DNA of 40,913 bases from Actinomycetota bacterium. Lineage in GTDB: Bacteria; Actinomycetota; Acidimicrobiia; Acidimicrobiales; Ilumatobacteraceae. The stretch's first letter is position 1. Each line of letters begins with the position of its first letter. The DNA lies in the NCBI GenBank assembly GCA_005778215.1, contig SXKB01000101.1, positions 1 through 40,913 of the forward strand. Direction: 5' to 3'. Position numbers and translations under genes: made by a program. Below the pieces are notes generated by a model, which was given only the letters and a program-made list of their open reading frames with translations, had not been told where the DNA came from and did no database searches. Positions 4,802 to 40,719 of the stretch are shown piece after piece.

Positions 4802-5402
4802 ACTGATCGTGTCCGAACAACTCGACGCCGACACCGTGCGCGCCATCGAAGCCATCGTGCTGGTGGCCATGGAGCCGGTGCCCACCGAGCTGCTGGCGCA
4901 GCTGCTCGAGCAGCCGACGACGGTGATCGACGACCTCTGTTCCACGCTGGCGGCGGCCTACGACGAGGCCGGGCACGGGTTCCAGCTCGTGAAGGTGGCG
5001 GGTGGCTGGCGCTACCAGACCCACGCCGACCTGTCGCCGTACGTCGAGCGATTCCTGCTCGACGGTCAGCGGGCCCGCATGAGCGGCGCTGCACTCGAGA
5101 CGCTGGCCATCATCGCCTACAAGCAACCGCTGTCGCGGGCGCAGATCGCCTCCATCCGCGGCGTCGACCCCGACGGTGTGATCCGCACCCTGCAGGCACG
5201 TAGTTACGTGGCCGAGGTGGGTCGCGACACCGGGCCCGGCCAGGCCATCCTGTACGGCACCACGCCGTCCTTCCTGGAGAAGCTCGGCCTGAACGCGTTG
5301 ACCGACCTGCCGCCGATCGCCGAGTTCGTGCCGGGTGCCGACGTGGTGGAAGCCCTCGAGCAGGGCCTGCGCATCGATCCGCCGGCCGAACCCCGTGCCT
5401 GA
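4791..5402 (+). CDS. scpB: Segregation and condensation protein B
   Basis: Partner of ScpA in the SMC condensin complex, built of two winged-helix domains. The protein has 203 residues from this ATG. Recognisable features are the opening AIEAIVLVAMEPVPTELLAQ and the central ETLAIIAYKQPLSRAQIASI stretch, the strongest ScpB signature. The ATG at 4791 overlaps the scpA end by 11 bases. A GTG at 4809 is an alternative start, with a purine-rich run (4793-4797) at roughly ribosome-binding distance. Its end overlaps the rluB GTG. A longer in-frame extension inside scpA is not real. Confidence 0.93.
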   Translation: MRDELIVSEQLDADTVRAIEAIVLVAMEPVPTELLAQLLEQPTTVIDDLCSTLAAAYDEAGHGFQLVKVAGGWRYQTHADLSPYVERFLLDGQRARMSGAALETLAIIAYKQPLSRAQIASIRGVDPDGVIRTLQARSYVAEVGRDTGPGQAILYGTTPSFLEKLGLNALTDLPPIAEFVPGADVVEALEQGLRIDPPAEPRA

Positions 5403-6186
5403 GGGCCAGGTGCCCGAGCCGCCGCTGTGGGAACAGTGGGCCGCCACGTCGGCCGCGCTGCCGCAGGGTGAACGTCTGCAGAAGGTGCTCTCCGCCCGCG
5501 GGTGGGGCAGCCGTCGGGTGTGCGAGGACCTCATCGCCGCTGGCCGCGTGACCGTGAACGGTGACGTCGCAGTGTTGGGCCGCCGCGTCGACCCCGAGGT
5601 CGACAAGGTGGAGGTCGACGGCGTGCCGCTCGGCGTGAAGGCCGGGCTGGTGTACTACCTGCTCAACAAGCCGGCGGGTGTGGTCACGACGGCCAGCGAT
5701 CCCCAAGGCCGTCGCACCGTGGTGCAGCTGGTGCCCGAGGAGCCGCGGGTGTACCCGGTCGGTCGCCTCGACGTGGCCACGGAGGGTCTGTTGTTGCTCA
5801 CCAACGACGGCGACCTGGCGAACCGCATCGCGCACCCGTCCCACGGGGTGGAGAAGGAGTACCTCGCCGAGGTGGAGGGCAACGTCAGCGGCGGCGCCCT
5901 CCGTCGACTGCGTGACGGCGTGGAGTTGGAGGACGGAATGACGGCGCCGGCCAAGGTGTCGCAACCCAATCCGGGCGTGCTGCGGCTCACCATCCACGAG
6001 GGTCGCAACCGGCAGGTGCGGCGGATGTGCGAGGCCGTCGGACATCCGGTGCAGCGACTGATCCGCGTGCGTATCGGCCCGCTGCGCGACGCCCAACTGC
6101 AGCCGGGCGAGTGGCGCGAACTGGACCAACGCGAGCTCAAGGCGTTGATCGAGGCGGTCTCCGGGGCACCCCGGCAGATACGCTGA
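5395..6186 (+). CDS. rluB: 23S rRNA pseudouridine synthase RluB-type
   Basis: RsuA/RluB-family enzyme that isomerises a uridine of large-subunit rRNA to pseudouridine. The 263-residue protein has an N-terminal S4 RNA-binding domain (about residues 26-60, GERLQKVLSARGWGSRRVCE). The catalytic aspartate Asp126 is in VGRLDVATEGLLLLTNDGDL, and the conserved GRNRQVRRM appears later. The GTG at 5395 overlaps the scpB stop by eight bases; a GTG at 5410 is possible. Position after scpAB matches the Mycobacterium order. RluB rather than RluE or RsuA is inferred from neighbourhood. Confidence 0.93.
   Translation: MPEGQVPEPPLWEQWAATSAALPQGERLQKVLSARGWGSRRVCEDLIAAGRVTVNGDVAVLGRRVDPEVDKVEVDGVPLGVKAGLVYYLLNKPAGVVTTASDPQGRRTVVQLVPEEPRVYPVGRLDVATEGLLLLTNDGDLANRIAHPSHGVEKEYLAEVEGNVSGGALRRLRDGVELEDGMTAPAKVSQPNPGVLRLTIHEGRNRQVRRMCEAVGHPVQRLIRVRIGPLRDAQLQPGEWRELDQRELKALIEAVSGAPRQIR
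6179..6184 (+). promoter_or_regulatory. Possible -10 hexamer TACGCT of tyrA
   Basis: TACGCT, overlapping the rluB stop codon region, lies eight bases before the tyrA GTG. This is the same spacing as at the divergent starts of this window. It may be an internal leaderless promoter, but it stands in coding sequence and could be chance. Confidence 0.3.
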
Positions 6187-6192
6187 TCTGCC

Positions 6193-7257
6193 GTGTCAAC
6201 ACCTCGTCGGGCGAATGTGGCGGGCCTCGGCCTCATCGGTGGCTCCATCGCCCGCGCCCTCGGTGAGCGTGGCTGGCACGTCACCGGCGACGACGAGCGC
6301 AGCGAGCGCCGTGAGCAGGCGCTCGAGCTCGGCATCGTGCACGACCTGGGGCTCGACCCCGACGCCGAGATCACGTTCGTGGCCACCCCCGTGCTCACCC
6401 TGGTCGACCAGGTGCAGCGGGCGCTGAAGGAGACGCACGGCCTCGTCACCGACGTCGGCAGCGTGAAGGGTGCCGTCACAGCCGCCGTCGATGACCCCCG
6501 GTTCGTGGGCGGCCACCCGATGGCCGGCAGCGAGCTCGAGGGCCTGTCGGGTGCCGACGGCAACATGTTCCAGGGCGCGGTCTGGGTGCTCACGCCCACG
6601 GCCACCACCCCCGACAGCACGTTCGCCACCGTGGCCGCCGTGGTGGCCGAACTGGGTGCCGACGTGGTGGCCCTGCCAGCCGATCGACACGACCAGGTGG
6701 TCGCCGTCATCAGCCACGTGCCGCATCTCACGGCCGCGACGCTCATGGGTCTGGCCAGTGATCGCGCCGAGGAACACGCGGCGCTGTTGCGGCTGGCGGC
6801 CGGTGGCTTCCGTGACATGACCCGCATCGCCAGTGGTCAGCCGAACATCTGGCTCGACATCTGTGCCGAGAACCGGGATGCCATCCTGTCCGCGCTCGAC
6901 GGTCTGATCGGTGGTCTGTCGCAGATGCGTTCGGTGGTCGACGGCGACGATCGGGCCGAACTGCACCGGCTGCTCTCGAAGGCTCGCGAGGCCCGCGCCA
7001 ATCTGCCGGTGCGCGGCACGCATCCCGACGAGTTGGCGGAGATGCGCATCCCCATCCTGGACCGCACCGGGTCGGCCGCCGAGGTGTTCACGCTCGCCGC
7101 CGAACTGGGTGTGAACATCTCGAGCTTCGAGGTGGTGCACAGCGTGGAGGGCAATCGTGGTGTGGCGGTGGTGCTGGTCGATGCGGCGATGGCCGAGTTG
7201 TACCGGGGCGGCCTGATGGCGCGGGGCTACCGCCCTGCGGTGCAGCGGCTGAGCTGA
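6193..7257 (+). CDS. tyrA: Prephenate dehydrogenase
   Basis: Oxidises prephenate to 4-hydroxyphenylpyruvate with NAD(P) in tyrosine synthesis. It has 354 residues. The Rossmann motif GLGLIGGS is at 11-18, the VTDVGSVKG strand follows, and the family signature GGHPMAGSE contains the substrate-site histidine. A C-terminal ACT-like domain (from about residue 275, IPILDRTGSAAEVFTLAAEL) probably mediates feedback by an aromatic amino acid. The GTG start lies six bases after the rluB stop without a ribosome binding site. It is followed closely by aroA, so two aromatic-pathway genes sit together. Confidence 0.94.
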   Translation: MSTPRRANVAGLGLIGGSIARALGERGWHVTGDDERSERREQALELGIVHDLGLDPDAEITFVATPVLTLVDQVQRALKETHGLVTDVGSVKGAVTAAVDDPRFVGGHPMAGSELEGLSGADGNMFQGAVWVLTPTATTPDSTFATVAAVVAELGADVVALPADRHDQVVAVISHVPHLTAATLMGLASDRAEEHAALLRLAAGGFRDMTRIASGQPNIWLDICAENRDAILSALDGLIGGLSQMRSVVDGDDRAELHRLLSKAREARANLPVRGTHPDELAEMRIPILDRTGSAAEVFTLAAELGVNISSFEVVHSVEGNRGVAVVLVDAAMAELYRGGLMARGYRPAVQRLS

Positions 7258-7266: not shown

Positions 7267-8535
7267 ATGGACGTGTATCGCGTCGCGCCGCTCGGTGCGC
7301 CCCTCGACGCCGTGGTGGAGGTGCCCGGGTCGAAGAGCGTGGCCAATCGTGCGTTGGTGTGCGCCGCGCTCGCCGAGGGCGAATCGGTGCTCACCGATGT
7401 GCCCGATGGCGACGACACCGAGGCGATGCTCGACTGCCTGCGGGTGCTGGGGCTGGAACTGGAACGTGCCGATGGCACGGTGCGGTTGATGGGCGGTGTG
7501 CGCTCGTTCCGCAAGGGGCCGGTCACGCTGCCCACCCGTCTCGCCGGTACGACGTCCCGTTTCGTGACGGCCTTGGCGTGCCTGGGGCCGGGACCGTACA
7601 CCATCGACGGTGCGCCACCCTTGCGACGCCGTCCGATGGCGCCGTTGCACGAGGCCCTCACCTCGATGGGCGTGCGGGTCACGCCGGGGCAGACGGCCGG
7701 TCACCTGCCGGTGACCGTGCAGGGTCCGGTCGACGTGAGCCTCGACGAGGTGCAGTTGCGGGGCGACATCAGTAGCCAGTACCTGACGGCGTTGATGCTC
7801 ATCGCGCCGTACTTCCCGAACGGGCTGCGCTTCGTGCTCACCACACCGCTCGTGTCGCGCCCGTACGTGCGCATCACTGCCGCGGTGATGGCCACGTTCG
7901 GTGTGCCCGGGGTGGAGTTGGGGGATCGCATCATCACCGTGCCGCCCGGTCGCTACCAGGCGCGCGAGTACACCATCGAACCCGATGCCAGCTCGGCCAG
8001 CTACCCGCTGGCGGCGGCTGCCATCTGCGGTGGCACGGTGCGGGTGCCCGGCCTCACCCACGAGTCGTTGCAGGGCGATGCGGCGTTCTGTCACGTGCTC
8101 GGCCGCATGGGCTGTGAGGTGCGTCAGGACCACACCGGCACCACTGTCACCCGCCACGGCCCGCTGCGTGGCATCGACATCGACATGGTCGACCTCAGCG
8201 ATCTCGTGCCCACGTTGGCGGCGGTCGGGGCCTTCGCCGAGGGCACCACCGACGTGCACGGTGTCGGCTTCATCCGCAACAAGGAGAGTGACCGTCTCAC
8301 CGACCTGTGCGTCGAGTTGCGGCGTGCCGGTATCGACGCCACCGACAACCGTGACGGCCTGGTGGTGCGTGCCAGCCGGCCGCACACCGCCACCCTCGCG
8401 ACCCACCACGATCACCGGCTGGCCATGGCGTTCGCGCTGGTCGGACTGGGTGCCAGCGGCATCATCGTCGAGGATCCCGATGTGGTGACGAAGAGTTGGC
8501 CAGACTTCTGGGCGATGATCGAGGGGCTCCGATGA
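7267..8535 (+). CDS. aroA: 3-phosphoshikimate 1-carboxyvinyltransferase (EPSP synthase)
   Basis: Transfers the enolpyruvyl group of PEP to shikimate-3-phosphate in the shikimate pathway. The 422-residue protein has PGSKSVANRAL near the start, the Gly-Thr loop as LAGTTSRFVTAL, DISSQYLTALML, ASYPLAAAA, the C-terminal NKESDR, and HDHRLAMAFAL. The region normally read as NAGTAMRP in class I enzymes differs, resembling other bacterial types. I draw no conclusion about inhibitor sensitivity. It lies nine bases after tyrA and overlaps the following HAD gene by ATGA, which ties aromatic synthesis to the polyprenyl-arabinose genes in one transcript. Confidence 0.95.
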   Translation: MDVYRVAPLGAPLDAVVEVPGSKSVANRALVCAALAEGESVLTDVPDGDDTEAMLDCLRVLGLELERADGTVRLMGGVRSFRKGPVTLPTRLAGTTSRFVTALACLGPGPYTIDGAPPLRRRPMAPLHEALTSMGVRVTPGQTAGHLPVTVQGPVDVSLDEVQLRGDISSQYLTALMLIAPYFPNGLRFVLTTPLVSRPYVRITAAVMATFGVPGVELGDRIITVPPGRYQAREYTIEPDASSASYPLAAAAICGGTVRVPGLTHESLQGDAAFCHVLGRMGCEVRQDHTGTTVTRHGPLRGIDIDMVDLSDLVPTLAAVGAFAEGTTDVHGVGFIRNKESDRLTDLCVELRRAGIDATDNRDGLVVRASRPHTATLATHHDHRLAMAFALVGLGASGIIVEDPDVVTKSWPDFWAMIEGLR

Positions 8536-9182
8536 CCGCGCGCGCCGAGACGCGCCCCGAGGTGGCGGCGTTCGACGTCGACGGCACGTTGACGGTGCGC
8601 GACTGCGTTCGCCCGTTCCTGGTGCGCGTCGGCGGTTGGAGCGGTCTCACGGCCGCCATCGCCCGCAAGCCGGCCGCATCGCTGGGCGCCGCGGTGCGCC
8701 GCGACCGGGACCGCGTGAAGGAGCTCGTGGTCGGCGGCGTGCTGCGCGGCCGCAAGGTGGCACAGGTGGAGGCCGTGGGCGAGCAGTTCGCCGAGCAGGT
8801 GGCTGCCGACTGGTTGCGCGCCGACACGGTGGCCCGGTTGCGCTGGCATCAGCGCATGGGTCATCGCATCGTGTTGGTCTCGGCGTCGCTGAGTCCGTAC
8901 CTGCGCCCGCTCGGTCGTACCCTCGGCGTCGACGAGGTGCTGTGCGCCGAGCCGCTGCGCGAGGGGGACCACTTCGCCGACGGCCTGCAGGGTGCGAACT
9001 GTCGTGCCGCCGAGAAGGTGCGCCGGCTGGAGGAGTGGCTGGCGAAGAGCGACCTGCGCGACGCCACCGTGTGGGCGTACGGCGACAGCGAGGGCGACCG
9101 CGAGCTGCTGGCCCGCGCCGACCATCCGCTGCTGGTGAAGGGCACCACGGTCTCTGCGGTGCCCGCGGGGTTCGCATCGTGA
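8532..9182 (+). CDS. HAD-IB family phosphatase; candidate phosphatase of the polyprenyl-arabinose pathway
   Basis: A 216-residue HAD hydrolase with all four motifs: DVDGT at 15-19, Ser117 in VSAS, Lys162, and GDSEGD at 184-189. It resembles the SerB-like HAD-IB group. The ATGA start overlap with aroA fixes the N-terminus, and it overlaps the next gene, a UbiA-family DPPR synthase, by GTGA. HAD domains occur fused to UbiA prenyltransferases of this type in some bacteria. I therefore infer that it may remove the 5-phosphate from polyprenylphosphoryl-5-phosphoribose, a step assigned to a PAP2-type protein in Mycobacterium. Phosphoserine or another phosphatase activity is possible. Confidence 0.88.
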   Translation: MTARAETRPEVAAFDVDGTLTVRDCVRPFLVRVGGWSGLTAAIARKPAASLGAAVRRDRDRVKELVVGGVLRGRKVAQVEAVGEQFAEQVAADWLRADTVARLRWHQRMGHRIVLVSASLSPYLRPLGRTLGVDEVLCAEPLREGDHFADGLQGANCRAAEKVRRLEEWLAKSDLRDATVWAYGDSEGDRELLARADHPLLVKGTTVSAVPAGFAS

Positions 9183-10048
9183 TTCGGGCGATCGTCAAGG
9201 AGGCCCGCCCGAAGCAGTGGGTGAAGAACATCCTGGTCTTCGCGGCGCCCGGCGCCGCCGGTTCGCTCGACGACTGGCCCATCCTGTGGCGCACCGTCGT
9301 GACGTTCATCGCGTTCTGCCTGGCGAGCAGCGGCACGTACTACTGGAACGACATCCACGACGTGGAGGCCGACCGCCTGCATCCGAAGAAGCGTCTGCGG
9401 CCCATCGCCAGCGGCGCGGTACCGCTCGGTGTGGCGAAGGTGGTCGGCACGTTGCTGCTGGTGGGCGGTATCGGCCTGTCGTTCGCGGTGCGCTGGCAGC
9501 TGGGTGTGGTGACGCTCGGGTACGTGGTGCTCACCACCACCTACAGCACCGCGCTGAAGCACGTGGCCGTGGTCGACCTGGTGGCCGTGGCTGCAGGGTT
9601 CGTGTTGCGTGCTATCGCCGGCGCTGTGGCCACCGAGGTGCCGATGAGCACCTGGTTCGTGCTCACGACGTCGTTCGGCTCGTTGTTCATCGTCACGGGC
9701 AAGCGCTACGCCGAGCTGCGCGAGTACGGCGACCACGCGGGCGCGGCCCGGGCATCGCTCGACGACTACACCCTCGGGTTCCTGCGCATCGTGCTGTCGG
9801 TGAGCGTGGGTGCGGCGTTGGTGACGTACTGCATCTGGGCGTTCGACACGAAGGAGATCAGTGGCTCCACGTGGCCGTTCTACGAGCTGTCGATCGTGCC
9901 GATGGTGACGGCGCTGCTGCGCTACACGTTGATCCTCGAACAGGGTCATGGCGCGGCGCCGGAGGAGATCTTCTCCGCCGATCGCACGCTGCAGGTGCTG
10001 GGTGTGGTGTGGGCGGTCGTGTTCGGTCTGGGGGTGTACGTAGGGTGA
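9179..10048 (+). CDS. Decaprenyl-phosphate phosphoribosyltransferase (DPPR synthase, UbiA family)
   Basis: Membrane enzyme joining PRPP to decaprenyl phosphate, the first step toward decaprenyl-phosphate-arabinose. The 289-residue protein opens with IVKEARPKQWVKNILVFAAP, which matches Rv3806c-type enzymes closely. The Mg-binding motif NDIHDVEAD is at 57-65, followed by HPKKRLRPIASG. The second site region KRYAELREYGDHAG is near 175-188, and the rest is hydrophobic helices. The GTG start overlaps the HAD stop by four bases. The end overlaps the methyltransferase GTG. Downstream dprE1 and dprE2 homologues support this specific function over ubiquinone or menaquinone prenylation. Confidence 0.94.
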   Translation: MIRAIVKEARPKQWVKNILVFAAPGAAGSLDDWPILWRTVVTFIAFCLASSGTYYWNDIHDVEADRLHPKKRLRPIASGAVPLGVAKVVGTLLLVGGIGLSFAVRWQLGVVTLGYVVLTTTYSTALKHVAVVDLVAVAAGFVLRAIAGAVATEVPMSTWFVLTTSFGSLFIVTGKRYAELREYGDHAGAARASLDDYTLGFLRIVLSVSVGAALVTYCIWAFDTKEISGSTWPFYELSIVPMVTALLRYTLILEQGHGAAPEEIFSADRTLQVLGVVWAVVFGLGVYVG

Positions 10049-10773
10049 GCAGCATGCGCACGTTCGACGAGGCGCTGGCACAGGTGCGCGAGGTGCAGGG
10101 GTGGATGAGCCCCGACCAGGCGGAGCGCCTGTACCGGGCCGCAGCGGCCACGCGGTCGGGTGATCAGATCGTGGAGATCGGCAGCTTCCAGGGCCGCAGC
10201 ACCATCGTGCTGGCCAGTGCCGCGCCGGCCGAGGTGCCGGTGGTGGCCATCGACCCGCATGCCGGCAACGACCGCGGTCCGCAGGAGATCGAAGGGTTCG
10301 CAGCCGAGGCCGAGAGCGACCACGAGATCTTCAACCGCAATCTCGCCGAGGCTGGCGTGGCCGATCATGTGCGTCACGTGCGCGCGTTCAGCGATGCGGC
10401 GCACGCGAGTGTCGAGGGCGACATCGCCGTGCTGTACATCGACGGTGCGCATCGCTATGCGCCCGCTCGCGCCGACATCCGCGACTGGGGTGCCCGTGTG
10501 GCGCCGGGTGGCACGATGCTCATCCACGACTCGTTCTCGTCGGTCGGCGTCACCTTGGGCATCCTGCGCGAGCTGCTGCTGAGCGGCCGTTTCCGCTACG
10601 TCGGTCGAGCTCGTTCGCTCACCGAGTTCCGTGCCGATCTCGACGGCACCGGTAAGAGCCGCGCCGTGAACGCGCTGCGCCTCGTGGCGCAGTTGCCGTG
10701 GTTCGCCAAGAACCTGCTGATCAAGGTGCTCATCACCCTGAAGTTGGGTGGCTCGCGGGAATGGCCATACTGA
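10045..10773 (+). CDS. Class I SAM-dependent methyltransferase in the polyprenyl-arabinose operon
   Basis: A 242-residue methyltransferase of the COMT-like/Methyltransf_24 type. The SAM motif is VEIGSFQGRS at 43-52 and the acidic end of strand 2 is in AIDPHAGND. YIDGAHRY (Asp133) and LIHDSF (Asp162) are typical of metal-dependent or metal-derived members. The C-terminus carries a hydrophobic/basic stretch (PWFAKNLLIKVLITLKL) that may touch the membrane. It overlaps the UbiA stop by GTGA; an ATG nine bases further in is an alternative start. It lies between the first and third enzymes of the arabinose-donor pathway, yet no methylation step is known there. The substrate is unknown. Confidence 0.85.
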   Translation: MSSMRTFDEALAQVREVQGWMSPDQAERLYRAAAATRSGDQIVEIGSFQGRSTIVLASAAPAEVPVVAIDPHAGNDRGPQEIEGFAAEAESDHEIFNRNLAEAGVADHVRHVRAFSDAAHASVEGDIAVLYIDGAHRYAPARADIRDWGARVAPGGTMLIHDSFSSVGVTLGILRELLLSGRFRYVGRARSLTEFRADLDGTGKSRAVNALRLVAQLPWFAKNLLIKVLITLKLGGSREWPY

Positions 10774-10778
10774 CGGGT

Positions 10779-12143
10779 ATGCCGATGCAGGTTCGTCGTT
10801 CGCTCGCCGGGTGGGGCCGTACCAACGCCACCGTGGCCGAGGTGCTCGAGGTGCCGAACCACGAGGTGGCCGCCGCCGTGAAGGAGGCCGGACCTCGTGG
10901 TGCGCTCGTGCGCGGCCTCGGTCGCAGCTACGGCGATGCGGCGCAGAACGCCGGCGGTCTGGTGCTGCGCCTGTTGGGCTCGGCGCACCAGGCGGTGCTC
11001 GATCCTGCGGCCGGCACGGTCACCGTGCCCGCGGGCGTGAACCTCGACGACCTGCTGCGCGTCATCGTGCCGCGAGGCTGGTTCGTGCCGGTCACGCCGG
11101 GCACGCGGTTCGTCACCATCGGCGGCGCAGTGGCGAGCGACATCCACGGCAAGAACCACCACGTCGAGGGCTCGTTCGGCAACCACGTCACCTCGCTCAC
11201 CCTGCTGCTGGCCGACGGCTCGCAGGTGGTGGTGGGTCCCGATCAGCGCCCCGACCTGTTCTGGGCCACGGTCGGCGGCATGGGCCTCACGGGCGTCATC
11301 CTCGACGCCACGATCCGGCTGCTGCCGATCGAGACCAGCCGCATGTCGGTCGACACCACCCGCATCCCCGACCTCGAGGCGTTGTTCACGGCGATGAGCG
11401 AGGGCGACGACGACTATCGCTACAGCGTGGCCTGGATCGATCTCGTGGCGAAGGGCAGCAGCCTGGGTCGCAGTGTGCTGACGCGCGGCGACCATGCCAC
11501 GACGGCACAGTTGGGACCGAAGGAGAGCGTGCAGCCGTTCGCGTACGGCCCCCACCAGCTGATCTCGGTGCCGCCGCTGGTGCCGCCGATGGGCGTGCTG
11601 AACCATGCCACCGTCGCGGCGTTCAACGAAGTGTGGTTCCGCAAGGCACCCCGTCACCGCGAGGGCGAGTTGCAGGGCATCGGTGCGTTCTTCCACCCGC
11701 TCGACCTGGTGGGTTCGTGGAACCGGCTGTACGGCGCGAAGGGCATGGTGCAGTACCAGTTCGTCGTGCCGTTCGGCGCCGAGGATGCGATGCGCACCGT
11801 CATCGAACGCCTGTCGGCCAGTGGTGCCGCCAGCTTCCTGGCTGTGCTCAAACGGTTCGGGGCGGGCAACCAGGCGCCACTGAGCTTCCCGGCCCCGGGC
11901 TGGACCTTGGCGCTCGACGTACCCGGTGCCTCGCACGGTCTCGGCGACCTGCTGCACGGACTCGACCGTGTGGTGCTGGATGCGGGCGGCCGGCACTACT
12001 TCGCGAAGGACGCACACACCACCGCCGCCGCCATCCGGCGCGGCTACCCCCGACTCGACGAGTGGAAGGCCGTGCGCGACGCGGTCGATCCGCACGGCGT
12101 GTGGCAGAGCGATCTGTCGCGCCGGCTCGGCCTCACGGACTGA
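10779..12143 (+). CDS. dprE1: Decaprenylphosphoryl-beta-D-ribose 2'-oxidase DprE1
   Basis: FAD enzyme oxidising decaprenylphosphoryl-ribose to the 2'-keto intermediate. It has 454 residues, near the mycobacterial length of about 460. The FAD domain has GLGRSYGD and DIHGKNHHVEGSFGNHV, with His123 equivalent to Mycobacterium His132. The substrate domain keeps catalytic Lys410 (YFAKDAHTT). The benzothiazinone-reactive cysteine (Cys387 in M. tuberculosis) is Ala378 here (codon 11910-11912, PGWTLALDVP). The ATG at 10779 matches the family N-terminus (RSLAGWGRT soon after); an ATG at 10761 would overlap the methyltransferase by 13 bases. Confidence 0.96.
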   Translation: MPMQVRRSLAGWGRTNATVAEVLEVPNHEVAAAVKEAGPRGALVRGLGRSYGDAAQNAGGLVLRLLGSAHQAVLDPAAGTVTVPAGVNLDDLLRVIVPRGWFVPVTPGTRFVTIGGAVASDIHGKNHHVEGSFGNHVTSLTLLLADGSQVVVGPDQRPDLFWATVGGMGLTGVILDATIRLLPIETSRMSVDTTRIPDLEALFTAMSEGDDDYRYSVAWIDLVAKGSSLGRSVLTRGDHATTAQLGPKESVQPFAYGPHQLISVPPLVPPMGVLNHATVAAFNEVWFRKAPRHREGELQGIGAFFHPLDLVGSWNRLYGAKGMVQYQFVVPFGAEDAMRTVIERLSASGAASFLAVLKRFGAGNQAPLSFPAPGWTLALDVPGASHGLGDLLHGLDRVVLDAGGRHYFAKDAHTTAAAIRRGYPRLDEWKAVRDAVDPHGVWQSDLSRRLGLTD

Positions 12144-12157: not shown

Positions 12158-12919
12158 ATGGACAACGCACTCGGCGAACCGCAGACCATCCTGCTGCTCG
12201 GCGGCACCAGCGAGATCGGCCTCGCCATCGTGCGCGAGCTGCTCAGCCCTGCGGCCCGCAAGATGATCCTCGCCTGCCGGCACGTCGACAAGGGCGAGCA
12301 AGCCGCTGCGGGCCTGCGGCACGACGCGCTCGACGTGGCCGTGGTGTCGTTCGACGGCAACGACACGGCGAGCCACGAGCAGGTGGTGGCCGACATCGCG
12401 GCGCAGCACGGCGACATCGACGTGGCCGTGGTGGCGTTCGCACTGCTCGGCGACGGTGCCGTGACATCGAAGGATCCCGTCGCAGCCGCTGCCGTGGCGC
12501 ACGTGAACTTCACCGGCACCGTCACGGCCACCATCGCGGTGGCCAACCGCATGCGTACCCAGGGCCACGGTGCCATCGTGCTGTTGAGCAGCGTCGCCGG
12601 TGAACGGGTGCGCAAGCAGAACCCGGTGTACGGCGGTACGAAGGCCGGCATCGATGGGTTCGCGCAGGGCCTGGGCGATGCGCTCGAGGCCGACGGCGTG
12701 CACCTGATGGTGGTGCGGCCCGGCTTCGTGCACTCGGCGATGACGGTGGGGCTCGATCCGGCGCCGTTCGCCACCACCCCCGAGAAGGTGGCGCAGGCCA
12801 CCGCGAAGGGGTTGCGCAGCCGCCGTCGAACCGTGTGGGCGCCGGGCATCCTGCGGTTCGTGTTCTCCGCGCTCCGGCACCTGCCGGGGCCGGTGTGGCG
12901 CCGTCTACCGCTGGGCTGA
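12158..12919 (+). CDS. dprE2: Decaprenylphosphoryl-2-keto-ribose reductase DprE2
   Basis: Short-chain dehydrogenase that reduces the DprE1 product to decaprenylphosphoryl-D-arabinose with NADH. The 253-residue length is almost identical to mycobacterial DprE2 (254). The nucleotide-binding loop is LLLGGTSEIGLAI at 13-24. The catalytic Ser145, Tyr158 and Lys162 are in VLLSSVAGER and VYGGTKAG. The C-terminal hydrophobic tail FSALRHLPGPVWRRLPLG fits membrane association. It is 14 bases after dprE1 with a GGAG site. Its last 15 bases overlap the end of the convergent membrane protein gene. Confidence 0.95.
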   Translation: MDNALGEPQTILLLGGTSEIGLAIVRELLSPAARKMILACRHVDKGEQAAAGLRHDALDVAVVSFDGNDTASHEQVVADIAAQHGDIDVAVVAFALLGDGAVTSKDPVAAAAVAHVNFTGTVTATIAVANRMRTQGHGAIVLLSSVAGERVRKQNPVYGGTKAGIDGFAQGLGDALEADGVHLMVVRPGFVHSAMTVGLDPAPFATTPEKVAQATAKGLRSRRRTVWAPGILRFVFSALRHLPGPVWRRLPLG

Positions 12920-34119: not shown

Positions 34120-35373
34120 ATGACCGAGGATCTCGACGCCGACACCGCACGCCGGGCACTGTGGGCTGCCGTCGGCGTGGGCGCGGTGGTACGTCTCGCG
34201 TACTTCGTCTCGAAGTGGTCGTCGCCGCTGTTGATGAACGACTCGCTGTACTACGCAGGGCAGGCGAAGCAGCTCCTCCAGGGGATGTGGTTCCGCGAGC
34301 CCTTCTTCCCGCAGCACCCCGGCGCCGAGCACGGGCCGCTGACGTCGATCCTGATGGCGCCGGTGAGCATCGGCGACGACTTCTACCGTTGGCAACGCCT
34401 CGTCACCGTGGCCACGGGCGTGGCGCTGGTGTGGGTGATCGGCCAGTGCACCGCTGAGATCGCGGGCCGTCGGGCGGCAGTGGCCGCGGCGTTCATCGCT
34501 GCGCTGTACCCGAATCTGTGGATGAACGACGGCCTGGTGATGTCGGAGAGCGTGAGCATGCTGTGCGTGGCGTGTTCGTTGTGGGCCGCATGGCGGCTGG
34601 CGCACGCCGACGACGGCCGGGCGGCCTGGCGTGCGGCGGCGGTGCTCGGTGTGGCGTTGGGTCTCGGCCTGCTGGCGCGCAGCGAACTGGTCACGTTCGC
34701 GCCGTTGGTGGTGGGCTGGGTCGCGCTCGTGCGTCGGCGGACGACATTCGACTGGCGGCCGGCGCTGCTGGCGCTGGTCGCGTGCGGCGTGCTCGTGTCG
34801 CCCTGGGTGGTGTTCAACCTCGCCCGGTTCGATCGGCCGGTTTTCCTCACCACGAACGACGGCACCACCTGGCTGGGATCCAACTGCGACGCGATGTACC
34901 GCGGGGGTGATGCCGGAGGATGGACGATCGAGTGCGTGGTGGCCGACCCTGAGTACGGCGCCGACGAGGAGCCGAGCGTGCGGTCGGCGCGGCAGCGGAC
35001 GCTCGGCCTGCGGTACATGGCCGATCACCTCACCGAGGTGCCGCGTGTGATGGCGACGCGGGTGGCACGCACCCTCGACCTCTACGGGCTGAGCGATCTG
35101 CTGCATCAGGACGTCGGTGAGGAACGGCCACGCTGGGCGGCCTGGGCGGGCATCGTGATGTTCTGGTTGCTCGCGCTGGCATCGATCGTGGGTGTGCGAC
35201 AGCTGCCTCGTCGCGCATGGTCGCTGCTGGTGATCCCGTTCGTGGTGGTGCTGGCCACCACGATGCTGTTCTACGGAGGCCATCGCATCCGCTCGACCGC
35301 CGAGCCGTCGTTGGTGATGCTCAGTGGGGTGGCGGCGGCGTGGTGGTGGTCGCGTCGTCGTCCCGCGCGCTGA
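34120..35373 (+). CDS. GT-C-like membrane glycosyltransferase (GT39/PMT_2-like)
   Basis: A 417-residue membrane protein. The first loop MNDSLYYAGQAKQLLQGMWF and the following AEHGPLTSILMAP match the PMT_2/GT39 pattern, where an Asp in the first loop binds the lipid-linked donor. MSESVSMLC and GLLARSEL follow, then helices up to the basic end SRRRPAR. GTG 34087 is an alternative start. Its last 53 bases overlap the aftD gene on the other strand, so the two 3' ends encode protein in both directions. The sugar is unknown. Confidence 0.85.
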   Translation: MTEDLDADTARRALWAAVGVGAVVRLAYFVSKWSSPLLMNDSLYYAGQAKQLLQGMWFREPFFPQHPGAEHGPLTSILMAPVSIGDDFYRWQRLVTVATGVALVWVIGQCTAEIAGRRAAVAAAFIAALYPNLWMNDGLVMSESVSMLCVACSLWAAWRLAHADDGRAAWRAAAVLGVALGLGLLARSELVTFAPLVVGWVALVRRRTTFDWRPALLALVACGVLVSPWVVFNLARFDRPVFLTTNDGTTWLGSNCDAMYRGGDAGGWTIECVVADPEYGADEEPSVRSARQRTLGLRYMADHLTEVPRVMATRVARTLDLYGLSDLLHQDVGEERPRWAAWAGIVMFWLLALASIVGVRQLPRRAWSLLVIPFVVVLATTMLFYGGHRIRSTAEPSLVMLSGVAAAWWWSRRRPAR

Positions 35374-38300
35374 GCGCGGCGCACAGCACCAGCACCACCA
35401 CCAGCAGTCCGGGGCGGTGCATCCGTTCGAACCAACCCGGCCACGCGGCGTTGGCCGGAGGGCGGAACTGCAGGACCCGCTGCAGGATGCGGGCCGAGAG
35501 CAGCGCCATGAGGCCCACCCCGGCCAGCGCGGCGATGCGCGGCCGACGGAAGACGAAGACCAGTACCGCGGGGACCACGGCCAGCAGCGCAGTACGCGGC
35601 GCCGCGACGAGTGCGGTGAGCAGCACGACGGCCACGGCAGAGAGTGCGGCATCGCTCCACGACGTGCGCGCGAGGACAAGGCGGTCGATGCGCGGCGGGG
35701 CAGGCGCGAAGTGGATGGCGTCGCGCCGGGCGGGGCGGCGGCGCAGCGCCAGGTACAGGCACGCCATCACGGCGAGCAGCGACGCCACGAGTGCGGCGGT
35801 GACGGGTGTCTGCGCGCCCCATTCGATGTGCACGACGGTGGTGGAGGTACTCGGTGGGAGCCACCAGCCGTTCATGCCGCCCGCGATCTGGACGGGGGTG
35901 CCCAGGTCGGCGTCCTCCGTGTGGGCCGCCCAGCCGAGGTTGAATCCTTCGCCCATCACCAACCAGCATCCGGCGGGGCACTCGTCGACCGTGGCGGTGC
36001 GTGAGGTGCGCGTGCGGGTGACGGTCACCGACGGCGAGTCCGTCGCAGCCGGACGAGCGTCGGCAGTGCGGAGCACGACGCGGTCGACGTCGATACCGGT
36101 GCCGGACTCGATACCCGGCTCGGTGCGCAGGCGGTGCGTGCCGGCGCCGAGTTCGAATGCGTCGCCATCGCAGGTGGGGACGTCGACTGCGTCGCCTGCG
36201 ACCAGTCGGGCGATGAGACCGTCGCTCAGCTCGACGCCGAGGGGCTTGCCGTCGAGTTCGGCGATGTCGACGCAGTACGGCACATGGTCGGCTTGGTGGA
36301 ACTCGCTGCGGCCCAGCCCGGGCGACGTGAGCTCGCGGATGGCCACCGGCAGCGTGATCGGCTCGGCGAATCGGCGGTCGGTGGTGGACCGTGGCTCGAT
36401 GTCGGCGATGGTGACGTGCAGCGGGCCGGTGGTGATCGTGGAGGTGAGCGGCACGGTGCTGATGCCGTCGGCGTCGGGCGGTGGCACGGTGAGGTCCATC
36501 GTGGTCGGCCCGTTGGAGACGGTGATGCCGGTGATGCGCGAGTGCAGTTCGTCGACCGGCTGTTGCAGCGTGAGGGTGTCCACGCCGAGCGGCCCCACGT
36601 CGAACTGCAACGAACTGCCGACGGCGCCGTCGAACGGCGACGTCCACGCCGTGGAGGGGTCGCCGTCGGCGGCGTAGACGCCGCGGGACCCCAGGTCGCC
36701 GGTGAGGCGGCGGTCGGCCACCGGGCCGATGGTCCCCTCCAGGTCGTTGATCACCTGATCGTCGACCCGGGCGCTCAGCCGCAGGGTGAACGTGGCGGAC
36801 ACGTCGTGCGAGTGGGCGGTGGTGAACTCGCGCTCGATCGACCGCTCCGGGTCGCTGCGCCAGCGGTTCAGCGGGTCGACACGTTCGCGGGTGAGCACCA
36901 CGGCGAAGGGGGTGTCGGCGGGCTCGTCGAAGGTCGGCAGCCGTACCACCTCGGTGTGTTCGCCGATGCCGAGCTCGGCGAACCCCACGGCGTCACGGCC
37001 TGGCGTGACGCCGGTGATGGTGATGCGCAGGCTCGCCCCCGGCTGCACGTCGACGTGTTGCCCTGGGGTGGTCAACGACGAGTCGTCGAGGACCACGTCG
37101 AGCGTGCCGGCACTGCTGCTCGTCTCGGTGATGCGCACCGACGTGATGTGGCGGTCGGTGCCCGGCGGCTGCAACAGGGTGAGGCGGCCGTCGTTGTCGG
37201 AGAGCTCGATGAAGTGGCCCACCGGGTCGGAGCGATCGGCCACCACCCAGGCCGTGTCGATGTCGCCGTCGACCGCCATCGCGGGGCGCTGCTCGGGGCG
37301 GTAGGCGAACGGTTCGCCGTAGCCGCTGGCTCGCACCACCAGGCCGGTGTCGAGCGCCGCAGTGGTCTGCTGGGTCGCGTCGTCGACGAGGCCGAACACG
37401 GGGAGCCGCTGGTCGCCCTCGTCGATACGCAGCACGTCGCTCCCAGGCCCGCCTGTCTCGGTGAAACCGGTGACGTCCTGCGAGCTGCGCCAGTGGTGAG
37501 CCCGGTCGCGGTTGGTGTCGGTGAGGATCACCATCGCGGCGTCGCCCGTCGGGCCATCGGCGGCGTAGAGCAGGGCCTCGTCGCCGTGCAACAGCCCGGC
37601 GGCAGCAGCGTCGAGCACCCCGTCGCCACTGCCGACCAGCACCACCACTCGGTCGCTGGCGCGCACGATCGACACCGGGTCGTCGACCGGTGCGAGCTGC
37701 ACGATGGGCAGCGCAGGCGACCCGGCGCGGGCTTCCACCAGCGCGTGTTCGCCGATCATCGGGATGTCGGGGACGTTCACGACCGGGTCGCCGTACGACG
37801 CAGGCTCGCCGATGCCGTCGGCCGCGAGCAGCGTGTCGGCGGCGTCGCCGGGCCGGGGCGTGCGGAACCGGTCGAAGGCGAGATCGTTCGCCAGCCACAC
37901 CGTGTCGACACCCAGGAAGCGCGCCACCGGTGCCAGCGCGGCGGCGTCGAGCGTGCCGGTCTGGACGCGGTCGTCGAGTGCGTACAGCAGGTCCATCAGG
38001 CCGGCAGATCCGAGTGGCAGCAGGTCGCGGGTGACGAGTGGCTTGGTGGTCATGCCGGGCAGCGGCGGATCGACGGTGTAGCCCCAGCGGAACGCGCCGA
38101 ACTCGGAGCCCGGCAACTGCAGCACCCGGTACTCCGACGACGTGGCCGACAGGTCGTCGGACGCCTGCTGCCACGCGACCGGCGGGTCCTGGTCGCGCTC
38201 GAGGGCAGGGTCGACGAGCCCGCCGTTCCAGAGCACGGGGAAGTTGAGCACGGCGACGGCCACCACGAGAGCGGGGGCGAGCACCCGGATGCGCCAACGG

Positions 38301-39481
38301 GTGGCGCCAACGGCGGTGACCAGCGCGCCGATGCCGAGGGCGAGGCCGAGGTTCGACATCGGCAGCGCACGGGTGCTGCTGCGAATGGCCAGCGCGAGCG
38401 CACTGCGCGAGTTCTCGGCCAACGGGGTCATCAACGGTGAGGCGTTGTCGATGGGGTGCACGCCCACGGCGAGCACGATGCCGGCGAACACGAGCAGTGC
38501 GGCGTAGCGACGCTGCGACCACCGGGTGACGGCGAGGCCCAACAGACACAGCACCACGATGCCGAAGCTGAGCACGATGGCGCGGCCGCTCTCCATGTAC
38601 GGCTGCGCCGCCGTGGTGGTGAAGGCATACGGGTCGCGGATGTAGAACAGCCAGTACCCGGCGCCGCGCAGCGTCTCGGTGGACGTGGACGTGAGCGAGG
38701 TGGCCTGGAGGCTCTCGCTGTACGACAGCACGTCGGCACCCCAGGCGCCCTGGGCGCGCAGCATCGCGATCCACCACAGCGACACGCCGGTGGCGAGCAC
38801 GCCGATGCGTGCGGCGGCGGCGACCGCTCGCTGCCACGTGACGGTGCGTTGGAGCACGGCGTGCAGCAGCCACAGCACGGGGGCCGGGGCGATCATCATC
38901 ACGGCCGTCGCGTTGACGGCACTGCACGACAGCAGCACCAAGGCCAGCAACGCCGGGTGTCGCCACCGGTGTCCACTCGTCGCGGCGCGGATGGTGAGGC
39001 CGACGATCCACCCGAGCGCGGCCCAGGGCAGCAGCATCGCCGAGGTGCGCGACAGATAGGGCAGCACGTACGGCGAGAGCATGTACACGAAGGCGGCTGC
39101 GAGCGCGCCGCCGCGGGTGAGGCCGAGCATGCGTGCGGCCCACAGCACACCCCAGGCGCCCAGGAACAGCAGCGTGCCGATCCACAGTCGGTGCGCCACC
39201 CAGTCGGGCACGCTCAGCGTCTCGAACACCCAGTACCACGGTCCCTGCGGCCACAGGTAGGCGATGGTCTGGTGTGGTACCCAACCACCGAACTGGCGGG
39301 TGTCCCACGTGAAGGGCGCATCGGCGATGAGACGGCCCGGATCGAGGTACAGGAACAGCTTGGTGTCGGTGGGCATCCGCCCCGGCTTGGTGAGCAGCGC
39401 CGGGAGGTACGCGACGAGGGCCAGGAGGGCGAGGTTCGCCCGGGTGACGCCGGCGGTGAGCCGCGAGCGTCCGTCGATCAC
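35321..39481 (-). CDS. aftD: Alpha-(1->3)-arabinofuranosyltransferase AftD-like (DUF3367)
   Basis: A 1386-residue protein, close to the size of mycobacterial AftD (about 1400). The N-terminal GT-C membrane domain has the AftD pattern TDTKLFLYLDPGRLI, then GWVPHQTIAYLWPQGPWYWV and VAHRLWIGTLLFLGAWGVLW. The large extracytoplasmic part contains repeated beta-rich, F5/8C-like carbohydrate-binding modules (for example AVDGDIDTAWV and AADGDPSTAWTSPFDG), and terminal helices close the chain. AftD adds arabinofuranose from polyprenyl-P-arabinose to arabinan. The start is GTG 39481, overlapping the next gene by GTGA. The Thr/Pro tail TTTTPPPPH lies in the overlap with the convergent 34120 gene. Confidence 0.92.
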   Translation of the reverse strand: MIDGRSRLTAGVTRANLALLALVAYLPALLTKPGRMPTDTKLFLYLDPGRLIADAPFTWDTRQFGGWVPHQTIAYLWPQGPWYWVFETLSVPDWVAHRLWIGTLLFLGAWGVLWAARMLGLTRGGALAAAFVYMLSPYVLPYLSRTSAMLLPWAALGWIVGLTIRAATSGHRWRHPALLALVLLSCSAVNATAVMMIAPAPVLWLLHAVLQRTVTWQRAVAAAARIGVLATGVSLWWIAMLRAQGAWGADVLSYSESLQATSLTSTSTETLRGAGYWLFYIRDPYAFTTTAAQPYMESGRAIVLSFGIVVLCLLGLAVTRWSQRRYAALLVFAGIVLAVGVHPIDNASPLMTPLAENSRSALALAIRSSTRALPMSNLGLALGIGALVTAVGATRWRIRVLAPALVVAVAVLNFPVLWNGGLVDPALERDQDPPVAWQQASDDLSATSSEYRVLQLPGSEFGAFRWGYTVDPPLPGMTTKPLVTRDLLPLGSAGLMDLLYALDDRVQTGTLDAAALAPVARFLGVDTVWLANDLAFDRFRTPRPGDAADTLLAADGIGEPASYGDPVVNVPDIPMIGEHALVEARAGSPALPIVQLAPVDDPVSIVRASDRVVVLVGSGDGVLDAAAAGLLHGDEALLYAADGPTGDAAMVILTDTNRDRAHHWRSSQDVTGFTETGGPGSDVLRIDEGDQRLPVFGLVDDATQQTTAALDTGLVVRASGYGEPFAYRPEQRPAMAVDGDIDTAWVVADRSDPVGHFIELSDNDGRLTLLQPPGTDRHITSVRITETSSSAGTLDVVLDDSSLTTPGQHVDVQPGASLRITITGVTPGRDAVGFAELGIGEHTEVVRLPTFDEPADTPFAVVLTRERVDPLNRWRSDPERSIEREFTTAHSHDVSATFTLRLSARVDDQVINDLEGTIGPVADRRLTGDLGSRGVYAADGDPSTAWTSPFDGAVGSSLQFDVGPLGVDTLTLQQPVDELHSRITGITVSNGPTTMDLTVPPPDADGISTVPLTSTITTGPLHVTIADIEPRSTTDRRFAEPITLPVAIRELTSPGLGRSEFHQADHVPYCVDIAELDGKPLGVELSDGLIARLVAGDAVDVPTCDGDAFELGAGTHRLRTEPGIESGTGIDVDRVVLRTADARPAATDSPSVTVTRTRTSRTATVDECPAGCWLVMGEGFNLGWAAHTEDADLGTPVQIAGGMNGWWLPPSTSTTVVHIEWGAQTPVTAALVASLLAVMACLYLALRRRPARRDAIHFAPAPPRIDRLVLARTSWSDAALSAVAVVLLTALVAAPRTALLAVVPAVLVFVFRRPRIAALAGVGLMALLSARILQRVLQFRPPANAAWPGWFERMHRPGLLVVVLVLCAALSARDDDATTTTPPPPH

Positions 39482-40719
39482 GGAATGGCTCCGTACACCC
39501 CGTACAGACCGGTGAGGCCGACGAGCCCGGCTGCACAGGCGGACAACACGTACGGCCACCAGTCGCGCTTGTCGCGGGCGAACCAGGCGCCGGCCGAGAT
39601 GAACAGCGGGAATGCCGTGAACACGAACCGCGGTCGGGCGGTGACGGTCTCGGGCATCACCATCAGCAGCACGATCACCGCGCAGTAGGCCACCATGAAC
39701 CACGGCAGCCGGTGCTGTTTCAGGAACCAGAACAGCAGGACGAGGGTGAGCACCGACAGCGCCGTGATGGTGTTGGTGGGGGAGGTGAGCGGGCTGGTGA
39801 AGGCTTCCCATGTGCGGCGGATGGCGGTGAGGCCGAAGCTGGTGCCCTCACCCCAGGCCTCGGTCTGCACGCGGAACCACACGCCGCGCTCGCCGGTGTG
39901 GTTGCCCAGGAACCACATGAAGCCCACGAAGCCCAACGGGGACAGCACTGGCGCGGCGAGCGACATCCAGTCGCGGCGTTCGCGGATGGCGAAGAACGAT
40001 GCCACTGCGCACGCGGCGACGAGCGCGATGCCGTTGGGTCGTGTGGCGGTGCCGATGGCGGCGAACAGGCCGGCGAGCCACCAGTTGCGTTTGAGGAGGA
40101 ACCACATGCACGCGGCGCTGACGGTGAGCAGGAGCGCCTCGGTGTAGGCGAAGGAGAGCACGAAACTGCCGGGGAACAGCGCCACCAGGATCATGGTCTT
40201 CTGCGCGACGTCGACGTCGAACAGTTCACGGGCGAGCAGGCCGATGAGCCAGATGGCCACCGCGCCGAGCACGAAGTTGACCGCGAGCGCAGCGACGGTG
40301 TCGCCACCGGGTAGGACGCGGTCGACGACGCGGACCAGCATCGGGTAGGTGGGGAAGAACGCGGCTCGTGCGTCGGGCACGAAGTAGGTGACGTTCGGCC
40401 GAACGGAGGTGGGATAGCCGTCGCGGACGATGCGCAGGTACCAGATGCCGTCCCACGAGGTGAGCACATCGAGAATGGGCCGCAGCGCGTTGCCGGGAAT
40501 GGCTTTGTTCGAGTAGTGCGGGTCGGCCCACTTGGCGAACGGGAAGTCGGCGATGCGCTTGTTCTCGTCGGCCTTCAGTTCGGCGGCGACGATGGCCGCG
40601 CCCACAGCGACACACAACCGGGACAGCAGATACACGAGCCCGGCCTTCTGCAGCGCAGATCGCCAGCTCGGTGGCGCCGGGGCGTGCGCGGCAGGAGCGT
40701 CGGTGGTGGTGTCGGTCAT
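39478..40719 (-). CDS. PIG-V-like mannosyltransferase, membrane GT-C
   Basis: A 413-residue membrane protein with the pattern of the PIG-V/GT-C mannosyltransferases: SWDGIWYLRIVRDGYP followed by AFFPTYPMLVRVVDRVLPG, then SFAYTEALLL and TATRPNGIALVAA. Enzymes of this group move mannose from a lipid-linked donor. Its stop overlaps the aftD GTG by GTGA, so it and AftD are co-translated, linking mannan- and arabinan-type chemistry. The N-terminal 20 residues are Thr/Ala/Pro-rich. No clear ribosome binding site precedes the ATG. A TAGCGT at 40754-40759 could be a promoter with a short leader. Confidence 0.88.
   Translation of the reverse strand: MTDTTTDAPAAHAPAPPSWRSALQKAGLVYLLSRLCVAVGAAIVAAELKADENKRIADFPFAKWADPHYSNKAIPGNALRPILDVLTSWDGIWYLRIVRDGYPTSVRPNVTYFVPDARAAFFPTYPMLVRVVDRVLPGGDTVAALAVNFVLGAVAIWLIGLLARELFDVDVAQKTMILVALFPGSFVLSFAYTEALLLTVSAACMWFLLKRNWWLAGLFAAIGTATRPNGIALVAACAVASFFAIRERRDWMSLAAPVLSPLGFVGFMWFLGNHTGERGVWFRVQTEAWGEGTSFGLTAIRRTWEAFTSPLTSPTNTITALSVLTLVLLFWFLKQHRLPWFMVAYCAVIVLLMVMPETVTARPRFVFTAFPLFISAGAWFARDKRDWWPYVLSACAAGLVGLTGLYGVYGAIP

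What the first reader, a model, noticed from the sequence alone, without database searches (positions are those of the whole stretch)
8532..9182. HAD phosphatase inside the polyprenyl-arabinose operon: candidate missing phosphatase
The pathway UbiA (DPPR synthase), phosphatase, DprE1, DprE2 needs removal of the 5-phosphate from polyprenylphosphoryl-5-phosphoribose. In Mycobacterium this is assigned to a PAP2-type protein; I see no PAP2 gene here. A complete HAD-IB phosphatase instead overlaps the UbiA start by GTGA, and HAD-UbiA fusions exist elsewhere. An alternative phosphatase class for this step is a clear, testable proposal.
Basis: partly seen in the sequence, partly recalled or inferred. 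Interest (0 to 1): 0.75.

Follow-up and report, generated by a model that had tools for sequence, protein, structure and literature searches.

The report
HAD phosphatase of lipid-arabinose operon
A small phosphatase gene travels with the genes that make lipid-linked arabinose in a lineage of actinobacteria, and probably removes the phosphate that relatives of the tuberculosis bacterium are thought to remove with an unrelated protein; an enzyme of this general kind is already known to do the same chemistry elsewhere.

Summary
A complete 216-residue HAD-IB phosphatase (8532-9182) overlaps AroA by ATGA and the DPPR-synthase-type UbiA by GTGA; DprE1, DprE2 and an AftD-type arabinosyltransferase gene are also in the window. 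This HAD lineage lies near UbiA and DprE1 in 28 of 111 distinct loci, in several gene orders; a PAP2 of the kind beside DPPRS in Nocardia and Rhodococcus lies there in 27; none has both. In 197 actinobacterial genomes, 9 of 28 with DprE1 carry the HAD (150 bits or more), against 0 of 169 without; 10 of the 28 carry the PAP2, none both. Persicobacter has a HAD of the same TIGR01490 type fused to a DPPRS-like UbiA. Limits: nothing was assayed; 56 of 111 loci have neither phosphatase nearby; the genome has six PAP2 hits elsewhere; related HADs occur away from DPPRS genes. The idea is not new: Kelly et al. 2024 (PMC11127046) showed that a HAD domain fused to a DPPRS-like UbiA removes this 5'-phosphate. 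Added here: a standalone HAD of another HAD-IB lineage in actinobacterial arabinose operons, and a pattern of alternative phosphatase-type neighbours, including PHP-domain genes in haloarchaea.

The parts
8532..9182 (+). HAD-IB phosphatase (TIGR01490), proposed polyprenylphosphoryl-5-phosphoribose 5'-phosphatase
   Evidence: AlphaFold model mean pLDDT 93.5
9179..10048 (+). UbiA-family polyprenyl-phosphate phosphoribosyltransferase (DPPRS type), GTGA overlap with the HAD
10054..10773 (+). Methyltransf_24 methyltransferase between UbiA and DprE1; its cluster is in 5 of the surveyed loci; role unknown
10761..12143 (+). DprE1 (NF053785, 607.7 bits); start could also be 10779
12158..12919 (+). DprE2 (NF053786, 319 bits)
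35321..39811 (-). AftD-type arabinofuranosyltransferase (PF11847, 298.9 bits; no NCBIfam match at E 1e-5), possible consumer of the lipid arabinose
7267..8535 (+). EPSP synthase (AroA), upstream neighbour, ATGA overlap with the HAD; present in 9 of the 28 HAD loci

Best explanation
The HAD gene encodes the 5'-phosphatase of the lipid-arabinose pathway. UbiA moves 5-phosphoribose from PRPP to polyprenyl phosphate; the HAD, through its nucleophile D15 and acid/base D17 with Mg2+ (roles recalled from the HAD superfamily), removes the 5-phosphate to give polyprenylphosphoryl-ribose; DprE1 and DprE2 epimerise this to the arabinose donor used by AftD-type transferases. In these actinobacteria it takes the place that a PAP2 protein holds in Nocardia, Rhodococcus and their kin. 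Shown here: sequence, motifs, linkage, co-occurrence, lack of overlap, predicted fold. Inferred: substrate, cellular side and necessity.
For: Linkage: HAD in the stretch around UbiA in 28 of 111 distinct loci, all 28 with DprE1; 25 of 28 within 200 bases of the nearest pathway domain (the others 1.6-3.6 kb); orders U12H 12, HU12 10, 2U1H 2, U1H 2, 2U1h' 1, 12UH 1 (loci). Lack of overlap: PAP2 in 27 of 111, both in 0. Order, 59 genomes: 19 have a HAD of 175 bits or more, all others 102 or less; 18 of 32 genomes with DPPRS over its cut-off against 1 of 27 without (Fisher 1.2e-5); leaving out the 12 genomes that fed the model, 6 of 20 against 1 of 27 (p 0.03). Phylum, 197 genomes: HAD of 150 bits or more in 9 of 28 DprE1+ and 0 of 169 DprE1- (p 7e-9; at least 3 of the 9, G000, G006 and G232, fed the model or match a row of it); PAP2 in 10 of the same 28; both 0. 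A TIGR01490-type HAD (112 bits) is fused to a DPPRS-like UbiA in Persicobacter, and a HAD of 134 bits by the operon model follows DPPRS in Prevotella. Precedent: the D18A mutant of ORF15 accumulates the phosphorylated lipid (PMC11127046 section 7).
Against: 56 of 111 loci have neither HAD nor PAP2 in the stretch, and 9 of 28 DprE1+ genomes have neither at these thresholds, so the step can be done otherwise. G039 has the HAD but no DPPRS hit. Six DPPRS+ genomes have the HAD away from UbiA. Five HADs on proteobacterial plasmids with no UbiA in the 2.5-kb flanks seen fall in the same tree group (47 rows, 94/94, not a starred branch), and the Persicobacter HAD joins one of them. A DprE1- genome, G219, has a weaker hit of 115.9 bits. 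HAD and PAP2 follow taxonomy, so their lack of overlap is confounded by descent. On one Sphingomonadaceae plasmid a fused HAD and a PAP2_3 gene lie 3 kb apart. The genome has six PAP2 hits elsewhere. No enzyme assay.
Confidence: 0.77

Rival explanations
1. The HAD does act on the phosphoribosyl lipid, but as one of several interchangeable phosphatases; a general PAP2 or other phosphatase suffices and the HAD only speeds the step. (Not exclusive with the best explanation.)
For: 56 of 111 loci have neither HAD nor PAP2 nearby; ten neighbour-cluster representatives scanned, of 45 clusters printed, held no phosphatase. Rv3807c was the one gene found not essential in knock-down (PMC5964476, passage). 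The D18A mutant of ORF15 still makes some dephosphorylated product (PMC11127046 section 7), and loss of noeN only lowers arabinosylation (PMC5080398 section 18). The window's genome has six PF01569 hits.
Against: All 9 genomes with the HAD in the phylum sample have DprE1, and none has the PAP2, which suggests a dedicated phosphatase where one is encoded. An older review reports that the C. glutamicum homologue of Rv3807c could not be deleted (PMC3229680, passage, unpublished there).
Confidence: 0.35
2. The HAD is a housekeeping or unrelated phosphatase (phosphoserine, histidinol phosphate, phosphatidylglycerophosphate) that sits here by chance or as part of the upstream aromatic genes.
For: The closest solved structures are an uncharacterised Bordetella protein (3fvv) and phosphoserine phosphatases. 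Weak similarity to histidinol-phosphatase models, and of some relatives to the PgpC model. In the window the HAD overlaps AroA.
Against: Equivalog cut-offs are far from met (histidinol-phosphatase 61.8 of 280 bits, SerB 12.6 of 144.15; PgpC not among its hits). AroA and TyrA are in the stretch in 9 of 28 HAD loci, DprE1 in all 28. A housekeeping enzyme would not be nearly confined to DPPRS+/DprE1+ genomes.
Confidence: 0.12
3. The HAD acts on another molecule of the pathway, for example a ribose phosphate or a phosphoribosylated glycan, not on the UbiA product.
For: The PRP domains described before ORF15 act on phosphoribosyl glycans (PMC11127046 introduction, passage); context cannot tell such substrates apart.
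Against: One dephosphorylation is required between UbiA and DprE1 (pathway as in PMC11127046); the HAD overlaps the UbiA start in the window and a HAD of its type is fused to UbiA in Persicobacter.
Confidence: 0.1

Closest known systems
PRP domain of the PPPRS ORF15, Citrobacter youngae O1 (PMC11127046)
   Same: HAD-superfamily phosphatase paired with a DPPRS-like UbiA; nucleophilic Asp; removes the 5'-phosphate of the polyprenyl-phosphoribose product.
   Different: There a fused N-terminal domain in a ribofuranose pathway without DprE1/DprE2. The fused HADs I could fetch (plasmid loci, NF006088 architecture) are another HAD-IB lineage: 17.6-29 bits by the operon-HAD model, own clade 100/100, though hhalign finds common descent at 98.8% and one operon HAD, L067, matches NF006088 at 29.2 bits. 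ORF15 itself was not in hand and was not aligned; that it has the NF006088 kind of HAD is my guess from its layout.
PAP2 phosphatase beside DPPRS (Rv3807c position)
   Same: Gene position beside DPPRS and the proposed reaction.
   Different: Another protein family; never in one locus with this HAD lineage. I call it Rv3807c-type from its position beside DPPRS (PMC3229680 passage); Rv3807c itself was not compared. A 2016 review calls Rv3807c putative and not essential in knock-down (PMC5964476, passage).
Standalone HAD-IB phosphatase after DPPRS on Lactococcus plasmid pLLF27D
   Same: Separate HAD-IB gene directly after the DPPRS gene.
   Different: A separate, long-branched HAD clade with Subdoligranulum, below the TIGR01490 cut-off (79.4 bits); no DprE1/DprE2 in the stretch seen.
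Persicobacter HAD-UbiA fusion (L262)
   Same: TIGR01490 HAD (112 bits) with a DPPRS-like UbiA.
   Different: One 497-residue frame; UbiA part just under the DPPRS cut-offs (221.3 of 234, 195.1 of 207); in the tree its HAD joins an Acinetobacter plasmid HAD.

Membership tests
HAD superfamily subfamily IB, TIGR01490 | Score over the curated cut-off | tested here: met
   136 bits against 98.3
HAD superfamily subfamily IB, TIGR01490 | Catalytic motifs I-IV (names and roles recalled) | tested here: met
   D15, D17, K162, D189 invariant in 27 of 27 aligned operon HADs
HAD superfamily subfamily IB, TIGR01490 | Fold like solved HAD-IB phosphatases | tested here: met
   model pLDDT 93.5; Foldseek best 3fvv (TM 0.71-0.72) and SerB structures
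Polyprenylphosphoryl-5-phosphoribose phosphatase (function) | Hydrolysis of the 5'-phosphate of the UbiA product | not testable with these tools
   needs an enzyme assay
Polyprenylphosphoryl-5-phosphoribose phosphatase (function) | Genetic association with DPPRS and DprE1/DprE2 | tested here: met
Fused PRP domain of NF006088-type proteins | Same HAD lineage as the fused domain | tested here: not met
   separate clade; P0001 not hit by NF006088 at E 0.1
PRP domain of C. youngae ORF15 | Sequence relation to ORF15 itself | not tested
   sequence not in hand
PAP2 phosphatase of the Rv3807c position | PF01569 match | tested here: not met
   PF01569 not among the HAD's Pfam matches at E 0.1
Histidinol-phosphatase / SerB | NCBIfam equivalog cut-off | tested here: not met
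   61.8 of 280 and 12.6 of 144.15 bits
DPPR synthase (UbiA partner) | NF008978 cut-off and Asp-rich motif | tested here: met
   353.7 of 207 bits; N57, D58, D61, D65 invariant in 13 of 13 aligned rows

The most novel reading that the evidence does not exclude
The 5'-phosphatase of the polyprenyl-phosphoribose pathway is a free slot that evolution has filled again and again with unrelated or distantly related enzymes: the PAP2 of the Rv3807c position, a divergent PAP2 (DUF212), at least three HAD-IB lineages, standalone and fused, and, in haloarchaea, a PHP-domain protein next to DPPRS in 4 of 4 plasmid loci. The window's HAD is one such recruitment, and the many pathways with no phosphatase nearby hide further ones.
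Probability: 0.55. Interest if true: 0.6.

Novelty: new variant of a known kind. Interest (0 to 1): 0.5.

Why it matters
The dephosphorylation step looks like the least settled of the lipid-arabinose pathway: the mycobacterial candidate Rv3807c is called putative, and not essential in knock-down, in a 2016 review (PMC5964476, passage). A small HAD that seems to take its place in other actinobacteria gives a tractable enzyme for the step, a way to name many 'HAD-IB family hydrolase' genes, and a part for rebuilding the pathway in vitro. It also suggests that the step is open to replacement, which may be why the mycobacterial gene is dispensable.

Tried and rejected
Considered and rejected: (a) HAD as part of the aroA/tyrA operon: AroA and TyrA are in the stretch in 9 of 28 HAD loci, DprE1 in all 28. 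(b) D24, K63 and N156 as a diagnostic substrate signature. Against order paralogues they look clean: D24 in 0 of 51, N156 in 0 of 51, K63 in 1 of 51, while N156 is in 27 of 27 operon HADs, 6 of 7 unlinked ones and 6 of 6 fused ones. But only 3 of 7 unlinked copies keep D24, and of 5 plasmid HADs with no UbiA in the stretch 5 keep D24, 4 K63 and 4 N156. So I treat them as a mark of descent, not as proof of substrate. (c) A conserved phosphatase in the loci with neither HAD nor PAP2: the ten cluster representatives scanned (of 45 clusters printed, some also in other groups) were CoaE, SDR, B12-binding, ATP-grasp, NAGPA, solute-binding, UvrB, SpoIID, methyltransferase and AMP-binding proteins; the other clusters were not scanned, so this is not settled. 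(d) NoeN of IRBG74 as phosphatase (proposed in PMC5080398): the gene between UbiA and the FAD oxidoreductase there is GtrA family, if it is noeN (the locus tags were not matched).

Led nowhere: nine literature searches (open-licence PMC only, mostly listings seen, no supplements) listed no other paper that I recognised as reporting a standalone HAD at this step or PHP genes beside DPPRS; that is weak evidence of absence. ORF15, the P. syringae protein and the earlier PRP paper were not in hand.

Rows dropped: L102 (same UbiA as L049) before the count of 111; L091's HAD is a fragment at a contig end, counted among the 28 loci but left out of A2; L271 repeats L263, is left out of the tree but sits's NEWDPPRS row (5 rows, 4 distinct). 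Plasmid survey: of 64 records with a DPPRS-like match I looked at 21 stretches.

Full report
What is there. The window holds a tight run of genes on the + strand: prephenate dehydrogenase 6193-7257 and EPSP synthase 7267-8535, the HAD 8532-9182, a UbiA-family protein 9179-10048, a Methyltransf_24 gene 10054-10773, DprE1 10761-12143 and DprE2 12158-12919. The HAD shares ATGA with the gene before it and GTGA with the UbiA start. The UbiA is a DPPR synthase by model (353.7 bits, cut-off 207) and by its best solved relative, 8j8j (E 3.8e-63). An AftD-type arabinofuranosyltransferase lies at 35321-39811 on the - strand (298.9 bits), so the window holds the makers and a likely user of the lipid arabinose. 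The genome is a 75%-complete assembly. Named relatives of the UbiA include Acidimicrobiales, Acidimicrobiia and Ilumatobacteraceae; the nearest are named only Actinomycetota or Actinomycetes.

The protein. It passes TIGR01490 (136 bits against 98.3) and PF12710, keeps D15, D17, K162 and D189, invariant in 27 of 27 aligned operon HADs, and its AlphaFold model (mean pLDDT 93.5, pTM 0.88) matches 3fvv and phosphoserine phosphatases best. It misses the cut-offs for histidinol-phosphatase and SerB by a wide margin.

Linkage. I took the 31 further DPPRS loci of the order that were over the cut-off (32 of 59 genomes with the own one; stretches), 80 named loci from genome contigs (the best 80 of 584 candidates) and the window. 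After removing one duplicate there are 111 loci. The HAD lies in 28, the PAP2 (model seeded from a Rhodococcus ruber plasmid) in 27, both in 0, neither in 56. Gene orders differ (HAD before UbiA in 10, after DprE2 in 12, other in 6), so the genes have stayed together through rearrangement. Some stretches are cut by contig ends, so 'neither' is an upper bound. All PAP2 loci are in the named set (27 of 79: Rhodococcus, Nocardia, Gordonia, Williamsia, Pseudonocardia, Amycolatopsis and kin); none in the order's 32. Rv3807c itself was not compared; 'Rv3807c position' means beside DPPRS.

Whole genomes. A model of the operon HADs (A2) splits the HADs of 59 order genomes cleanly: 19 genomes reach 175 bits or more, the rest 102 or less. 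18 of the 19 have DPPRS over its cut-off; G039 has no hit. 12 of the 19 fed the model; among the other 47 genomes the count is 6 of 20 DPPRS+ against 1 of 27 (Fisher p 0.03). Those six lie away from UbiA; in one (G019) a DprE2-like gene is near. In 197 genomes of the phylum, DprE1 (E 1e-80 or less) is in 28; the HAD (150 bits or more) in 9, all DprE1+; G219, DprE1-, has a weaker hit of 115.9 bits; the PAP2 (E 1e-25 or less) in 13, of which 10 are DprE1+; no genome has both; 9 DprE1+ genomes have neither. In 8 of the 9 HAD genomes a HAD copy lies within about 3 kb of a DprE1. At least 3 of the 9 (G000, G006, and G232, identical to a row) fed the model. The lack of overlap has hypergeometric p 0.007 but follows taxonomy, so it is weaker than it looks. 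The best PAP2 of the order by this model has 65 bits against 243-308 for the operon-borne ones. The own genome has six PF01569 hits, five over the cut-off, on other contigs.

Other lineages. Of 64 plasmid records with a DPPRS-like match I looked at 21 stretches (models). Seven have a HAD of the NF006088 kind fused to UbiA (Rhodovulum, Cereibacter, Ruegeria, Sphingomonadaceae, Leisingera, Agrobacterium salinitolerans, Burkholderia); three of these, Cereibacter, Ruegeria and A. salinitolerans, stand with genes annotated as FAD-binding oxidoreductase and SDR. Mesorhizobium has such a HAD split over two frames. Three have HADs nearer the window's: Lactococcus and Prevotella after DPPRS, Persicobacter as a 497-residue fusion (TIGR01490 112 bits). 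One has the PAP2 (R. ruber), one a divergent PAP2 (Marivivens), four haloarchaea a PHP-domain gene, and four none that I could see (IRBG74, Sinorhizobium, Kovacikia, Flammeovirgaceae). Subdoligranulum, found through its HAD, has one after a UbiA of 98 bits. The Sphingomonadaceae plasmid also has a PAP2_3 gene 3 kb from its fused HAD.

Tree. In a tree of 108 HAD rows the window's group (47 rows, 94/94, not starred) holds all 27 operon and 7 unlinked HADs, the Persicobacter and Prevotella ones and 5 plasmid HADs with no UbiA in the stretch; 51 paralogues of the order form another group (99/92); the NF006088-type HADs (100/100) and the Lactococcus pair (100/99) are apart, with a long-branch warning.

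What is known. Kelly et al. 2024 (PMC11127046; abstract, passages, section 7 and part 1 of section 12 read) showed that the HAD-family PRP domain of C. youngae ORF15, fused to a DPPRS-like UbiA, removes the 5'-phosphate; the D18A mutant accumulates the phosphorylated product, with some leak. They note a C-terminal PRP domain in a P. syringae protein predicted to serve arabinose, and call Rv3807c, a phosphatase they cite from Cai 2014 (not read), unrelated. Rv3807c was the one gene of the set found not essential in knock-down (PMC5964476, passage); an older review reports that its C. glutamicum homologue could not be deleted (PMC3229680, passage, unpublished there). NoeN was proposed as the phosphatase in a rhizobium (PMC5080398, section 18 read).

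Verdict. The class of enzyme at this step is already in print. What is added is a standalone HAD of another lineage as the apparent stand-in for the PAP2 in actinobacterial arabinose operons, and a wider pattern of replacement at this step. Substrate and necessity remain inferred.

Noticed in passing
L214:5934-6614, L221:4864-5502, L272:4905-5585, L273 (PHP region about 4905-5582): In 4 of 4 haloarchaeal plasmid loci looked at, a PHP-domain gene lies directly downstream of the DPPRS-like gene, followed in the 3 annotated ones by a lysylphosphatidylglycerol-synthase-TM protein: a candidate further phosphatase class.
   Followed up: partly
L217:4837-5256: Marivivens plasmid: a divergent PAP2 (DUF212) gene directly follows the DPPRS gene, sharing its last base.
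   Followed up: no
L148:6858-7280: In the IRBG74 arabinosylation operon the gene between UbiA and the FAD oxidoreductase, probably noeN, is GtrA family, more like a flippase than the phosphatase proposed in print.
   Followed up: partly
L152:4135-5852: Mesorhizobium plasmid: the HAD of a fused HAD-UbiA protein is spread over two reading frames.
   Followed up: no
window 35321-39811 (-): AftD-type arabinofuranosyltransferase gene; what arabinan it builds in this organism is unknown.
   Followed up: partly
window 10054-10773 (+): Methyltransf_24 methyltransferase between UbiA and DprE1, with relatives in a few other loci; role unknown.
   Followed up: no
L060:4046-5584 and L150:6833-7735: Phosphodiester glycosidase (NAGPA) genes near DPPRS both in actinobacterial loci (a cluster of 7 loci) and on the Lactococcus plasmid.
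   Followed up: no
L195:7594-8394 (-): In G019, where HAD and UbiA are on different contigs, a DprE2-like SDR gene lies about 1 kb from the HAD.
   Followed up: partly
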